The position numbers were made by a program, and so were the translations under genes. The notes beneath the pieces were generated by a model. It ran no database searches and was not told the origin of the DNA. It saw only the letters and a list, made by a program, of their open reading frames with translations. From Devosia faecipullorum (lineage in GTDB: Bacteria; Pseudomonadota; Alphaproteobacteria; Rhizobiales; Devosiaceae): a stretch of DNA of 64,000 nt. Shown here one piece after another: positions 8,773 through 28,255 of the stretch (position 1 is its first letter; the number at the start of each line of letters is the position of its first letter). The DNA lies in contig NZ_JACDXV010000003.1 of assembly GCF_015158295.1 (NCBI RefSeq), positions 124,001 through 188,000 on the forward strand, read 5' to 3'.

Positions 8773-9602
8773 TGGCCTGGTATGACATGGCGCTCTGGCC
8801 CTTCCAATTGCCCTTCATGGTGCAGGCGATGTGGATCGCGATATTGGTGGCGGTGCCGACGGCCCTATTGTCCTGCTTTCTCGTCCTCAAGGGCTGGTCG
8901 CTGATGGGTGACGCCATTTCCCATGCCATCCTGCCCGGCGTGGTACTGGCCTATATCGTCGGCCTGCCGCTCGGGATCGGGGCCTTCGGCGCCGGCATGG
9001 CCTGCGCGCTCTCGGTGGGCTTTCTCAAGGAAAACAGCCGGGTCAAGGAAGACACGATCATGGGCGTGGTCTTTTCCGGCCTCTTTGGCCTGGGCATCGT
9101 GCTCTATACCGCGATCCGCACGGACGTGCATCTCGACCATATCCTGTTTGGCAATATGCTGGGAACCGGGCGGGACGATCTTTTGACATCCTCCATCATT
9201 GCCCTGATCGTCGCCCTGATCATCGCCGCCAAATGGCGCGACTTCATGCTCTTCATCTTCGATCCGCAACAGGCGCGGGTCATGGGCCTGCCGGTGCGGC
9301 TCCTGCATTACGGGCTCCTGGCGCTGATTTCGCTCACCATTGTCGGGGCCTTGCAGGCGGTGGGGATCGTCCTGGTCATTGCCCTGCTGATCGCTCCGGG
9401 CGCCATCGCCTTCCTGCTCAGCCGCCGCTTCGGCGTCATGCTGGTTCTGGCCATGGCCATTTCGGTGAGTTGTGGCCTGCTCGGCGTCTATCTGAGCTTC
9501 TTCCTCGACAGCGCCCCCGCGCCCACCATCGTGCTGTTGCTGAGCGCCGCGTTCATTGCCGCCTTCCTCCGGGCGCAGCGCCGGAACGTGGCGGCCGCCT
9601 AG
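8772..9602 (+). CDS. sitD: Mn/Fe ABC transporter permease SitD
   Basis: A 276-residue ABC-3 permease paralogous to SitC, with the matching LKGWSLMGDAISHAILPG segment and the coupling loop DPQQARVMGLPVRLLH. The ATG at 8772 shares its A with the last base of the sitC stop codon. The longer frame back to 8613 lies inside sitC and is not used. It ends the sit operon; no terminator hairpin follows, and an EcfG promoter begins 29 bp downstream. Confidence 0.9.
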   Translation: MAWYDMALWPFQLPFMVQAMWIAILVAVPTALLSCFLVLKGWSLMGDAISHAILPGVVLAYIVGLPLGIGAFGAGMACALSVGFLKENSRVKEDTIMGVVFSGLFGLGIVLYTAIRTDVHLDHILFGNMLGTGRDDLLTSSIIALIVALIIAAKWRDFMLFIFDPQQARVMGLPVRLLHYGLLALISLTIVGALQAVGIVLVIALLIAPGAIAFLLSRRFGVMLVLAMAISVSCGLLGVYLSFFLDSAPAPTIVLLLSAAFIAAFLRAQRRNVAAA

Positions 9603-9630
9603 CCAGCGAGAATCGCCGCGCCGAGGCGGC

Positions 9631-9656
9631 GGAACAAAAACGCCCTTTCTGCCGTT
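9631..9656 (+). promoter_or_regulatory. EcfG-type (general stress sigma factor) promoter
   Basis: GGAAC at 9631-9635 and CGTT at 9653-9656 are separated by exactly 17 bp. This is the full consensus for sigma-EcfG, the alphaproteobacterial general stress sigma factor (GGAAC-N16/17-CGTT). It lies 37 bp upstream of the first micropeptide start, in the only intergenic gap of the region, so it should drive the 9693-10785 cluster. I saw no other match among the intergenic GGAAC or GTTCC sites checked in the window. Confidence 0.75.
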
Positions 9657-9692
9657 GCCTTGCCACCAGCGTCACAAACAAGAGGGCTTTTC

Positions 9693-9767
9693 ATGAACAG
9701 CATCATCTACCTCGTCGGTCTGGTCGTCATCGTCATGGCCATTCTGTCCTTTATCGGCCTCGCCTGA
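9693..9767 (+). CDS. 24-residue single-helix membrane micropeptide
   Basis: A very small gene: ATG at 9693, stop at 9765-9767, 24 residues. An AGAGGG ribosome-binding site lies 6-7 bp upstream. After a short start (MNSIIY) the peptide is almost entirely hydrophobic and can span the membrane once. It sits just behind an EcfG promoter and 25 bp before the 297-residue membrane protein. A second 24-residue hydrophobic gene follows that protein. I do not recognise a named family; function unknown. Support is the start context, the ribosome-binding site and operon position rather than homology. Confidence 0.6.
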   Translation: MNSIIYLVGLVVIVMAILSFIGLA

Positions 9768-9792
9768 GCGCCCGGACAGAAAGGACAAAGCC

Positions 9793-10686
9793 ATGACCAT
9801 AGAGACAAGTTCGGGCATTGCCGTGGTGGAAAAAGTCGCCACGGGTCGCGACGAAACCAGCTATGTCGACTGGCCGGCCATTTTCGCCGGCATCGTCTTT
9901 GCATCGGCCGTTTCGCTGGTGCTGATCAGCTTCGGCTCGGCCATCGGGCTCAATTTCGTCGGCTTCGAGGCCCGCGAAGGCGCACCGGCCTTTCTGGTCG
10001 CCATCGGCGCGGCAAGCTGGTTCCTCTGGGTGCAGATTTCCAGCTTCATGGCCGGCGGCTACCTCACCGGACGCCTGCGCCGGCGCCATTTCGACGCCAG
10101 TGAAGATGAAAGCGACATGCGCGACGGCGCCCATGGCCTGCTGGTCTGGGGCGGCGCGCTGGTCATCGGCGCAATCTTGGCGCTCAGCGGCGTCGGCGCG
10201 CTCGCCAATGCCACGGGCCAGGCCATATCCACCGCCACGATTGCCGCATCCAACATGGCTGAGGACAGCGTGTCGGCAACCGATCCAAACGCCTATTTCA
10301 TCGACACCCTGTTCCGCGCCAATACACCCGTCGATCCGGGTATTGCCCGCGACGAAGCGGGCCGGATTTTCGCACAGGCCGCCTTTACCGACGGCACGAT
10401 TTCGAGCGAAGACCGGACCTATCTCGCCAATGTCGTCGCCGCCAATACCGGCCTCACGCCAGAGGAGGCGCAGGCCCGGGTCAATATGGTGGAAGCCAAT
10501 GTCGAGGCGGCCCGTCAGGACGCCATCGAGGCGGCGCGCATTGCCCGCAACACGGCCATCATCGCGGCCTTCCTGATCGCCGCGTCCTCGCTGGTTTCGG
10601 CCATCGGCGCCTATTGGGCCGCGCAGAAGGGCGGCAATCACCGCGATCGCAACACGGCGTTTGCCGACGTGTTCCGCCGTTTCTAA
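9793..10686 (+). CDS. Polytopic membrane protein of unknown function (stress-operon core; PhnA-like annotation in relatives)
   Basis: A 297-residue protein with about four transmembrane helices: two near residues 30-100, one near 115-140 and one near 255-275. The N-terminal helices are Gly/Ala/Ser-rich (YVDWPAIFAGIVFA, SFMAGGYLTGRLRRRH). Between helices 3 and 4 lies a ~110-residue soluble, Ala/Glu-rich segment (IARDEAGRIFAQAA, NVEAARQDAIEAARI) that looks helical. Similar proteins in rhizobia are often labelled PhnA-like, with no demonstrated link to phosphonates. It lies in an EcfG-promoted operon between two 24-residue membrane peptides, so a role in membrane stress is a reasonable inference. 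Confidence 0.7.
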   Translation: MTIETSSGIAVVEKVATGRDETSYVDWPAIFAGIVFASAVSLVLISFGSAIGLNFVGFEAREGAPAFLVAIGAASWFLWVQISSFMAGGYLTGRLRRRHFDASEDESDMRDGAHGLLVWGGALVIGAILALSGVGALANATGQAISTATIAASNMAEDSVSATDPNAYFIDTLFRANTPVDPGIARDEAGRIFAQAAFTDGTISSEDRTYLANVVAANTGLTPEEAQARVNMVEANVEAARQDAIEAARIARNTAIIAAFLIAASSLVSAIGAYWAAQKGGNHRDRNTAFADVFRRF

Positions 10687-10710
10687 ACCAGCAGAAAGAG
10701 GAGAAAACCC

Positions 10711-10785
10711 ATGTTCAAAGGTCTGGCACTCTGGCTGCTCGGCGTTCCGATCTGGCTGATCATCATCTTCTTCCTGGTCACCTGA
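10711..10785 (+). CDS. Second 24-residue single-helix membrane micropeptide
   Basis: ATG at 10711, stop at 10783-10785, 24 residues, preceded by a strong AAAGAGGAGA ribosome-binding site. The peptide (MFKGLALWLL... ending FFLVT) has one positive residue followed by an uninterrupted hydrophobic helix with Trp residues. It follows the 297-residue membrane protein by 24 bp and is followed at once by an intrinsic terminator, making it the last gene of the EcfG operon. It equals the first micropeptide (9693-9767) in length but not in sequence. Function unknown. Confidence 0.65.
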   Translation: MFKGLALWLLGVPIWLIIIFFLVT

Positions 10786-10794
10786 GCGGAACAA

Positions 10795-10820
10795 GGGCGG
10801 GGCGCAAGTCCCGCCTTTTT
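10795..10820 (+). terminator. Intrinsic terminator of the EcfG operon
   Basis: Stem GGCGGG / CCCGCC with an eight-base loop, followed directly by TTTTT. It begins about 10 bp after the stop codon of the second micropeptide, defining the 3' end of the transcript that starts near 9663. Confidence 0.8.
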
Positions 10821-10935
10821 CGTTGCGCTGCCGGCCGAGACCGGCCATTTTCCTCCATCGCCCCTTCCCATAAATGCCCTTCCGCCCCGGCTGGCCTCGC
10901 GCTAGGCTGACGCACGTACATCCGGAGGGGAGCAC

Positions 10936-12063
10936 ATGACTGGCAAGCGGCTCAATATCGGCGTCATCGGCACCGGCAATATTTCGTCGGCCTATCTCAA
11001 GGCCATACTGGGCAAGGACGGCCTGCCGGGCTTCCCCATGCTCGACATCAAGGCACTCTCGGATATGCGCCCCGACGCGGCGGCGGCACGGGCCGAAGAA
11101 TTCGGACTCAAGGCGCAGAGCATCGAGGCGATGCTGGCCGATCCCGGGATCGATCTCGTGATCAATCTCACCATTCCGCGCGCCCATGTCGAGGTCGGGC
11201 TCAAATGCCTGGCGGCGGGCAAGCATGTCTATTCGGAAAAACCACTGGGCATCACTGTCGCCGAGGGCCGGCAATTGCTCGGTGCCGCCAAGGCGGCCGG
11301 ACGGCGCGTGGGCTCGGCCCCCGATACTTTCCTGGGCGGCGCGCACCAGCAGGCGCGGGCCATAATCGATAGCGGCGTGCTCGGCCCCATCGTCGGCGGC
11401 ACCGCCTTCTTCCAGTGCCCCGGCCATGAAAGCTGGCACCCCGACCCCGCCTTCTATTACGATCGCGGTGGCGGGCCGATGCTCGATATGGGGCCCTATT
11501 ACATCACCGACCTCGTCAACCTGCTGGGGCCGGTGACCCGGGTGTCGGCCATGTCGTCGCGGCTCCGCCAGGAGCGGGTGATCACCTCCGAGCCGAAAAA
11601 AGGCGAGACCATGAAAGTGAGCATCGACACCCACGTCACCGGCTCGATCGGTTTTGCCAATGGCGCCATCGTCCAGATCGGCATGAGTTTCGACGTGGCT
11701 GCCCACAAGCATGTGCCGCTCGAAATCTATGGCACCGAGCAGAGCCTGATCGTTCCCGATCCCAATTTCTTTGGTGGCGAGATCGAGATGCGGCGGCGCG
11801 GCCGCGACGAGCAATGGGTCGGCGTCGAGGTCGAAGCGCCCTATGCTTCGGGCAATTACCGCTCGCTGGGCGTCGCCGACATGGCGCTGGCCATTCTCGA
11901 AAACCGGCCGCATCGGGCCAGCGGCGCGCTGGCCCTGCATGTGCTCGAAGTCATGGAAGCGTTTGAACAGGCCGCCCGCGAGGGCCGGACCATCGCCATC
12001 ACATCCATGGTGGAGCGCCCGGCGCCGCTGGCCGAGAGCCTCAGGAACGGTGTTCTGGCGTAG
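10936..12063 (+). CDS. Gfo/Idh/MocA family oxidoreductase
   Basis: A 375-residue NAD(P)-dependent dehydrogenase. The N-terminal Rossmann motif is GVIGTGNISSAYL, and the catalytic-lysine motif EKP appears in KHVYSEKPLGIT (residue ~105). The C-terminal domain contains the family GGGPMLDMGPYYITDL stretch with the catalytic region. The family oxidises or reduces sugars, inositols and related polyols; the substrate is not evident. The gene appears monocistronic, with an AGGGGAG-type site at 10924-10932. Confidence 0.85.
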   Translation: MTGKRLNIGVIGTGNISSAYLKAILGKDGLPGFPMLDIKALSDMRPDAAAARAEEFGLKAQSIEAMLADPGIDLVINLTIPRAHVEVGLKCLAAGKHVYSEKPLGITVAEGRQLLGAAKAAGRRVGSAPDTFLGGAHQQARAIIDSGVLGPIVGGTAFFQCPGHESWHPDPAFYYDRGGGPMLDMGPYYITDLVNLLGPVTRVSAMSSRLRQERVITSEPKKGETMKVSIDTHVTGSIGFANGAIVQIGMSFDVAAHKHVPLEIYGTEQSLIVPDPNFFGGEIEMRRRGRDEQWVGVEVEAPYASGNYRSLGVADMALAILENRPHRASGALALHVLEVMEAFEQAAREGRTIAITSMVERPAPLAESLRNGVLA

Positions 12064-28082: not shown

Positions 28083-28255
28083 CGGAGGAACCTCGGGGGC
28101 AGGCAGGACGGAATTGCGGAGCCGAAACGGCGTGCATATGCGCAGAGCAATACGCTTGTTATCCTTAACGTGGCGCGAATGGGGCAGTTCCCTCGCCACA
28201 ATGTGATGACCCGCTCCCCTGTTGCCGGAACGCCACAAATACCGCTCCGCCCAGC

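What the first reader, a model, noticed from the sequence alone, without database searches (positions are those of the whole stretch)
9631..10820. EcfG-driven operon of two 24-residue membrane peptides flanking a membrane protein
A full-consensus general-stress promoter (GGAAC-N17-CGTT) is followed by a 24-residue hydrophobic peptide, a 297-residue polytopic protein and another 24-residue hydrophobic peptide, then a clean terminator. All three genes have good ribosome-binding sites. Both micropeptides are too short for normal annotation. The arrangement looks like a stress-induced membrane complex, with the peptides as possible small subunits or regulators. I know of no described system with this exact layout.
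Basis: partly seen in the sequence, partly recalled or inferred. Interest (0 to 1): 0.72.

Follow-up and report, generated by a model that had tools for sequence, protein, structure and literature searches.

The report
Stress-operon membrane micropeptides with partner protein
A soil bacterium carries a small operon, probably switched on by stress, in which two tiny membrane peptides sit beside a larger membrane protein of unknown function, and the same parts recur together, in different orders, in related bacteria.

Summary
Confirmed. A GGAAC-N17-CGTT site (9631-9656) precedes P1 (24 aa), C (297 aa), P2 (24 aa) and a terminator in a Devosia-like genome that has PhyR-NepR-EcfG. One site in one genome is not significant; comparison is. 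Both peptides are under in-frame purifying selection (pN/pS 0.16, 0.25; 66 loci). The window's flanking genes recur near 0 and 3 of 49 loci, yet the trio stays. Five Hoeflea and four Pelagibacterium loci have P2-P1-C; in 5 of 5 Hoeflea loci the site precedes P2. Of the 72 strongest C loci in 347 genomes, 60 have P1 and/or P2 within 450 nt. P2 occurs in 64 of 70 C-bearing genomes, 45 of 277 others. Stand-alone copies also have sites: P1 38 of 69, P2 19 of 24. Four of four betaproteobacterial plasmid loci examined keep P2 beside C, without the site. Neither peptide has a Pfam/NCBIfam family; eight paper searches found no description. Best reading: stress-response microproteins working with C, probably as exchangeable subunits or regulators. 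Contact and function are untested; most peptide copies lie away from C, so YohP-like independent action remains a serious rival.

The parts
9631..9656 (+). EcfG (general stress response) promoter-like site, GGAAC-N17-CGTT
   Evidence: GGAAC-N15..18-GTT 59-67 nt before P1 in 52 of 65 relatives with P2 behind C
9693..9767 (+). P1: 24-residue single-helix membrane microprotein
   Evidence: pN/pS 0.163 in frame; family across the order
9793..10686 (+). C: 297-residue membrane protein, four hydrophobic segments (29-47, 64-82, 116-134, 256-274) and a weakly TerB-like stretch 193-253
10711..10785 (+). P2: 24-residue membrane microprotein with a W-L-L-G-V-P core
   Evidence: pN/pS 0.252 in frame; family across the order
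10796..10820 (+). intrinsic terminator: GGCGGG stem, 8-base loop, CCCGCC, TTTTT
   Evidence: sequence; overlapping terminator-like site

Best explanation
The block is a self-contained operon of the alphaproteobacterial general stress response. When PhyR frees the sigma factor EcfG from NepR, EcfG transcribes P1, C and P2 from the site at 9631. P1 and P2 are real single-helix inner-membrane microproteins of two separate families. C is a four-helix membrane protein with a helical, probably soluble stretch of about 110 residues before its last helix. The peptides most likely act with C in the inner membrane as small, exchangeable subunits or regulators, in the manner of CydX, KdpF or AcrZ. Supported by comparison: the peptides are coded and selected; the unit is conserved while its neighbours are not; gene order changes while the parts stay together; sites of EcfG type precede the unit and many stand-alone copies. 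Inferred: transcription by EcfG, membrane insertion and topology, direct contact with C, and a protective envelope function.
For: Codon-level selection on both peptides: in-frame pN/pS 0.163 and 0.252, forward out-of-frame 1.4-2.9; C itself 0.331 over 55 loci. P1 in 79 of the 80 named C loci kept. Autonomy: the window's upstream permease is near 0 of 49 loci, its downstream oxidoreductase near 3 of 49. Layout P1-C-P2 versus P2-P1-C, with the site before P2 in 5 of 5 Hoeflea loci. 60 of the 72 strongest C loci have P1 and/or P2 within 450 nt on the same strand. P2 in 64 of 70 C-positive and 45 of 277 other genomes; P1 in 38 of 70 and 48 of 277. At 18 located P1 loci of the class outside the order, C follows in 10 and the site is present in 13. 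C of 4 betaproteobacterial plasmids has P2 beside it, before (2) or after (2), without the site. Sites before stand-alone P1 38 of 69 and P2 19 of 24. PhyR, NepR and an ECF sigma factor in this genome.
Against: No contact was tested. Most copies of the peptides are not beside C: P1 69 of 107 and P2 77 of 119 transcribed hits. 31 of 69 stand-alone P1 have no site. Conservation in P1 shows no one-sided helix face: 9066 of 20000 shuffles reach the observed moment. Of 7 Devosiaceae genomes without C, 1 still has P1 and 2 a P2 match. 13 of 65 loci with P2 behind C, and 19 of 28 without, lack the site before P1. One P1 antisense frame also has pN/pS below 1 (0.33); antisense frames of P2 were not tested. 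The AlphaFold model of C is poor (mean pLDDT 61.7) and gave no confident fold match, so the activity of C is unknown. Genomes in the panels are related, so co-occurrence counts are not independent.
Confidence: 0.55

Rival explanations
1. P1 and P2 act on the lipid bilayer by themselves, as the E. coli stress microprotein YohP does (lower membrane potential, changed lipids, metabolic silencing), and C is a co-regulated protein, perhaps one that limits or repairs the effect.
For: Many P1 and P2 copies stand alone under an EcfG-type site; several copies in some genomes; conservation all round the P1 helix rather than on one face. YohP is a 27-residue stress-induced membrane protein with such effects (PMC12719787: abstract, outline and passages).
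Against: P2 tracks C across genomes (64 of 70 against 45 of 277) and stays beside C in 4 of 4 betaproteobacterial plasmid loci without the site. G9, V12, L18 and G22 are invariant in 108 of 108 distinct P1, more specific than a bilayer effect needs, although the set was gathered by profile.
Confidence: 0.27
2. P1 is a leader peptide or translational-coupling frame for C, and the peptide product itself does nothing.
For: P1 lies directly upstream of C in many loci, with gaps near zero in some (L167, L248).
Against: Amino-acid conservation in frame; stand-alone P1 with its own site; P2 lies downstream of C in the window; no Rfam match at E up to 1 in 9500-11000.
Confidence: 0.06
3. The peptides are type I toxin-like membrane poisons held by an antisense RNA.
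For: Small size, hydrophobicity, several copies per genome and some tandem copies.
Against: Linked with C and with a stress-type promoter; no Rfam match in 9500-11000. An antisense RNA was not specifically searched for.
Confidence: 0.06
4. Chance short frames beside an ordinary membrane gene.
For: GC-rich DNA holds many spurious frames: one search lists 80 of at least 20 aa overlapping 5.5 kb.
Against: Conservation of frame, sequence and place, in distant hosts too.
Confidence: 0.02

Closest known systems
YohP (E. coli, 27 aa, stress-induced small membrane protein; Pfam PF25659)
   Same: Size, single hydrophobic helix, made under stress; a weak partial Pfam match of one P1 relative (E 0.12, 12 residues).
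   Different: 12.7 bits against a cut-off of 27, and the window's P1 has no match. The passages I read of PMC12719787 name no partner like C; the sigma system differs.
CydX, KdpF, AcrZ kind of accessory microproteins (search listing and starts of abstracts; further detail recalled)
   Same: Single-helix peptides that act on or within a large membrane protein or complex.
   Different: Partners there are known enzymes or pumps; here C is uncharacterised, there are two peptide families without visible similarity, and control looks like EcfG.
TerB family (PF05099)
   Same: A stretch of C (193-253) matches weakly; 24 of 59 members of alignment A4 match at E up to 0.1, best 0.0002.
   Different: 18.7 bits against a cut-off of 24.4; my hydropathy reading would put the stretch outside the cytoplasm, unlike TerB as I recall it.
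SEP6 of Sinorhizobium meliloti (under 30 aa, predicted membrane helix, tagged protein mainly in the P100 pellet, conserved in Hyphomicrobiales; PMC10117765, section 24 and passages)
   Same: Size class, predicted helix, taxonomic range.

Membership tests
EcfG general-stress regulon | GGAAC-N16-CGTT type site (GGAAC-N17-20-GTT in S. melonis) before the operon | tested here: met
   window site; 52 of 65 relatives with P2 behind C against shuffle mean 0.55, and 9 of 28 without; published motifs in passages of PMC3892343 and PMC6599016
EcfG general-stress regulon | PhyR, NepR and EcfG in the genome | tested here: met
   (PhyR domains, NepR and an ECF sigma factor side by side on contig G000:C1)
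EcfG general-stress regulon | loss of transcript in an ecfG mutant | not testable with these tools
   no expression data on hand
Small accessory subunit of a membrane complex (CydX/KdpF/AcrZ kind) | conserved, coded single-helix hydrophobic peptide | tested here: met
   codon-level selection; mean hydropathy 2.40 and 2.19; translation itself not measured
Small accessory subunit of a membrane complex (CydX/KdpF/AcrZ kind) | steady genetic linkage with one larger membrane protein | tested here: met
   from the side of C: 60 of 72 strongest loci, P1 in 79 of 80 named loci. From the side of the peptides it is looser: 69 of 107 P1 and 77 of 119 P2 hits lie elsewhere
Small accessory subunit of a membrane complex (CydX/KdpF/AcrZ kind) | physical contact with the partner | not testable with these tools
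   no complex prediction on hand; the indirect helix-face test on P1 was negative
TerB (PF05099) | score above the curated cut-off | tested here: not met
   18.7 against 24.4 bits
YohP (PF25659) | score above the curated cut-off | tested here: not met
   window P1 has no match; one relative 12.7 against 27 bits
Type I toxin | antisense RNA and growth arrest on expression | not tested
   only an Rfam scan of 9500-11000 was run, without a match at E up to 1

The most novel reading that the evidence does not exclude
P1 and P2 are two unrelated but interchangeable single-helix subunits of one uncharacterised membrane complex built on C, an old module that alphaproteobacteria placed under the EcfG stress switch and that some betaproteobacteria keep without it; the choice and place of the peptide tune what C does to the envelope under stress.
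Probability: 0.35. Interest if true: 0.85.

Novelty: new variant of a known kind. Interest (0 to 1): 0.72.

Why it matters
What the alphaproteobacterial general stress response does to the cell is hard to read because many of its targets are unnamed (several are 'hypothetical protein' in the S. melonis table passages). Here are two microprotein families and one membrane protein family, in many genera, with EcfG-type sites and no name. No annotated feature lay under the P1 match in any of the 40 plasmid rows listed (of 61 records), although that gene table is incomplete. The unit gives a direct handle: a three-gene deletion and single-peptide complementation would test an envelope function of the response.

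Tried and rejected
The site alone as evidence: rejected, since single-genome counts are near or below control. A one-sided interaction face on P1: not supported. C as a TerB member: below cut-off. Fold of C: model too poor, no match with E up to 0.001 in PDB or BFVD; the sequence profile against PDB gave only an HU hit at E 0.34. Defence system: no PADLOC match at E up to 1. Phage origin: no match of 9600-10860 in the phage collection. RNA element: none at E up to 1. Literature: eight searches; one search looked for three short peptide strings in the papers and found none; supplementary files could not be read. PMC10903887 (small membrane protein finder) was looked at by passages only, with no mention of rhizobia or Alphaproteobacteria. 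Whether S. meliloti SEP6 is P1 or P2: not settled.

Rows dropped. One search kept the best 80 of 421 relatives. In one search I transcribed 107 P1, 119 P2 and 104 C places from the lists. Left out were P1 rows with E above about 4e-4, P2 rows above about 6e-4 and one P2 row with a stop inside, further segments of one C gene, and some of the weakest C rows. 'Strong' means the first 72 C places in order of E (to 2.5e-38). In one search the 277 'other' genomes include 21 with a weaker C match (one search has 91 of 347 at E up to 1e-10). In one search, 119 records were reduced to 96 by identical 3' ends; the G-handle and named loci overlap. One search used 93 of the 94 loci with P1 (one had too little upstream DNA). 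One search took all 69 stand-alone P1 and 24 of 77 stand-alone P2. In one search, 2 of 24 loci were not placed. After I looked at 8 plasmid C loci of 82 records.

Full report
What is there. The genome is Devosia-like: named relatives of C are mostly Devosia. Of 61 genomes searched, own included, 37 have C, 34 of them among the 37 of the genus.

Is it more than chance? The promoter pattern alone is not: 2 in the window against 0.97 expected, 47 in the genome against 90 for the reversed control. Conservation settles it. I took 119 records of the locus, reduced to 96 unique ones; 94 have P1 by a strict rule and 66 of them also have P2 behind C. Over the 66, pN/pS is 0.163 for P1 and 0.252 for P2 in frame, and 1.4 to 2.9 in the other two forward frames. 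The three antisense frames of P1 give 1.1, 0.33 and 3.8; I take the 0.33 as the shadow of a conserved sense frame. Antisense frames of P2 were not tested. Changes sit mostly at third positions (0.27 and 0.28 against 0.02-0.12). C gives 0.331 over 55 loci, and P1 and P2 0.174 and 0.253 over the same ones, so the peptides are more constrained than the protein.

The site. In the 130 nt before P1, GGAAC-N15..18-GTT occurs in 52 of 65 loci with P2 behind C (reverse strand 4; 100 shuffles: mean 0.55, maximum 4), at 59-67 nt from the ATG. Of the 13 without it, 9 have GCAACCA instead (my count by eye); some EcfG-dependent genes of Sphingomonas melonis have sites beginning GCAAC in the table passages I read (PMC6599016). 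In 28 loci without P2 behind C the site is before P1 in 9 (reverse strand 1, shuffle mean 0.16); nine of these 28 are the P2-P1-C loci described below, whose head is P2. The base before GTT varies: AGTT 22, GGTT 17, TGTT 9, CGTT 4.

The stress system is present. PhyR, NepR and an ECF sigma factor lie together on another contig, with a GGAAC-N16-CGTT site before phyR and another before a DUF1328 gene.

The unit is autonomous and its order changes. In 49 named loci with P1, P2 and long flanks, the window's upstream permease has a homologue nearby in none and the downstream oxidoreductase in 3. In Hoeflea (5 loci) and Pelagibacterium (4 loci) the order is P2-P1-C instead of P1-C-P2. There the site lies before P2 in 5 of 5 Hoeflea loci; 0 of 4 Pelagibacterium loci fit the pattern, though three have a GGAAC with a weaker second half. 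Aliihoeflea, Mesorhizobium and allied loci show P1-C with no P2 by the rule used. In a panel of 347 genomes of the order, I classed the 72 strongest C loci: 19 have P1 upstream only, 29 P2 upstream only, 11 P1 upstream with P2 downstream, 1 both upstream, 12 neither. Of the genomes of those 12, ten have P1 or P2 elsewhere. By genome, P2 is present in 64 of 70 with strong C and 45 of 277 others; P1 in 38 of 70 and 48 of 277; either in 68 of 70 and 85 of 277. Relatedness makes tests of these counts too generous. Of 7 Devosiaceae genomes without C, P1 is in 1 and a P2 match in 2, one weak.

Both peptides are families of their own. With profiles built from tool outputs, P1 matches 172 of 347 genomes at E up to 1, a loose limit that admits chance; 86 genomes remain at about 4e-4 (transcribed). 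P2 matches 124 of 347 at E up to 0.01 and 109 at about 6e-4. Stand-alone copies often carry EcfG-type sites: P1 38 of 69 (strict form 25; shuffles 0.74; reverse strand 6), P2 19 of 24 (strict 17; shuffles 0.14; reverse strand 0). In the class panel of 385 genomes P1 is in 30 and P2 in 54 at E up to 0.001, so both are far from universal. At 18 located P1 loci of the class outside the order, C follows in 10 and the site is present in 13; at the 4 located loci outside the class there is neither (no shuffles were run there).

On plasmids, the 8 C loci I examined of 82 records all have a peptide of one of the two families nearby: P2 in Pandoraea (2), Paraburkholderia, Variovorax, Rhizobium and Ensifer, P1 in Bradyrhizobium and Paracoccus. 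The site is present in 3 of the 8 (Rhizobium, Ensifer, Paracoccus) and in none of the betaproteobacterial four, in the part searched. EcfG is described as confined to Alphaproteobacteria (abstract of PMC3892343), so the pairing exists without that promoter. This is the strongest reason to think that the products, and not only the regulation, belong together.

What the parts look like. Hydropathy gives C four hydrophobic segments. A basic stretch follows the second (GRLRRR) and C ends in a basic tail, so I infer both ends inside and the stretch between segments three and four outside. That stretch holds the best-modelled part (about 171-240) of an otherwise poor AlphaFold model (mean pLDDT 61.7) and matches TerB weakly (18.7 bits, cut-off 24.4; 24 of 59 members at E up to 0.1). 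No solved fold matched with confidence. P1 and P2 have mean hydropathy 2.40 and 2.19. In 108 distinct P1, G9, V12, L18 and G22 never vary; these were collected by profile, so the figure is partly built in. They do not line one face: 9066 of 20000 shuffles reach the observed helical moment of conservation. In P2, L7, G11 and P13 are invariant in the 23 forms compared.

How it most likely works. On stress, EcfG starts transcription, by position about 30 nt before P1; P1, C and P2 are made and inserted together; the peptides pack with C and adjust its stability or activity in the inner membrane. Only the site, the coding and the linkage are supported here, by computation; induction, insertion, contact and the action of C are inferred. 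The main rival is a YohP-like direct effect of the peptides on the membrane. YohP, a 27-residue stress protein, lowers membrane potential and alters lipids (PMC12719787: abstract, outline and passages). The many stand-alone copies and the all-round conservation of P1 speak for that rival; the tracking of P2 with C and the betaproteobacterial pairs speak against it.

What is known. Neither peptide has a Pfam or NCBIfam match over cut-off. No annotated feature lay under the P1 match in the 40 plasmid rows listed of 61 records, though that gene table is incomplete; for P2, 1 of 3 records has a 'hypothetical protein' there. C is a 'hypothetical protein' in the listed rows that show a feature (60 rows of 82 records). 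Paper searches gave no description of this layout in their listings; the library holds only open-licence papers and supplements were closed. A possible link is SEP6 of S. meliloti, under 30 residues, mainly in the P100 pellet when tagged (PMC10117765, section 24 and passages); I could not compare its letters.

Noticed in passing
L071 1835-3833 (own genome, contig C1): EcfG-like sigma factor, NepR and PhyR genes with a GGAAC-N16-CGTT site before phyR and a second before a 54-aa DUF1328 gene.
   Followed up: partly
window 28167-28191, minus strand: A second GGAAC-N16-CGTT match; the window total is near chance, so it may mean nothing.
   Followed up: no
L280/L299 and L283/L306: Two P1-like genes in tandem, starts about 140 nt apart, in two genomes; weaker second matches at like spacing in four more, G063, G142, G173 and G224.
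   Followed up: partly
L279, L291, L292, L295, L296, L298: Stand-alone P1 followed after 44-63 nt by a 165-190 aa charged protein beginning MSTK or MSVK, a possible second partner of P1.
   Followed up: no
L246, L247, L366, L367, L368: Neighbours of stand-alone P1 or of C include otsAB, glgX, CsbD, YqjD, phasin and manganese catalase genes, which I know as usual stress genes.
   Followed up: no
L356, L358, L359, L360: P1-like peptides outside the class, with neither the GGAAC site nor C nearby.
   Followed up: partly
L080: A contig titled Opitutus carries a Devosia-type locus, probably a mislabelled or mixed assembly.
   Followed up: no
window 9751-11940, minus strand: A 729-codon open frame antisense to C and the next gene, most likely a by-product of GC-rich codon use.
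   Followed up: no
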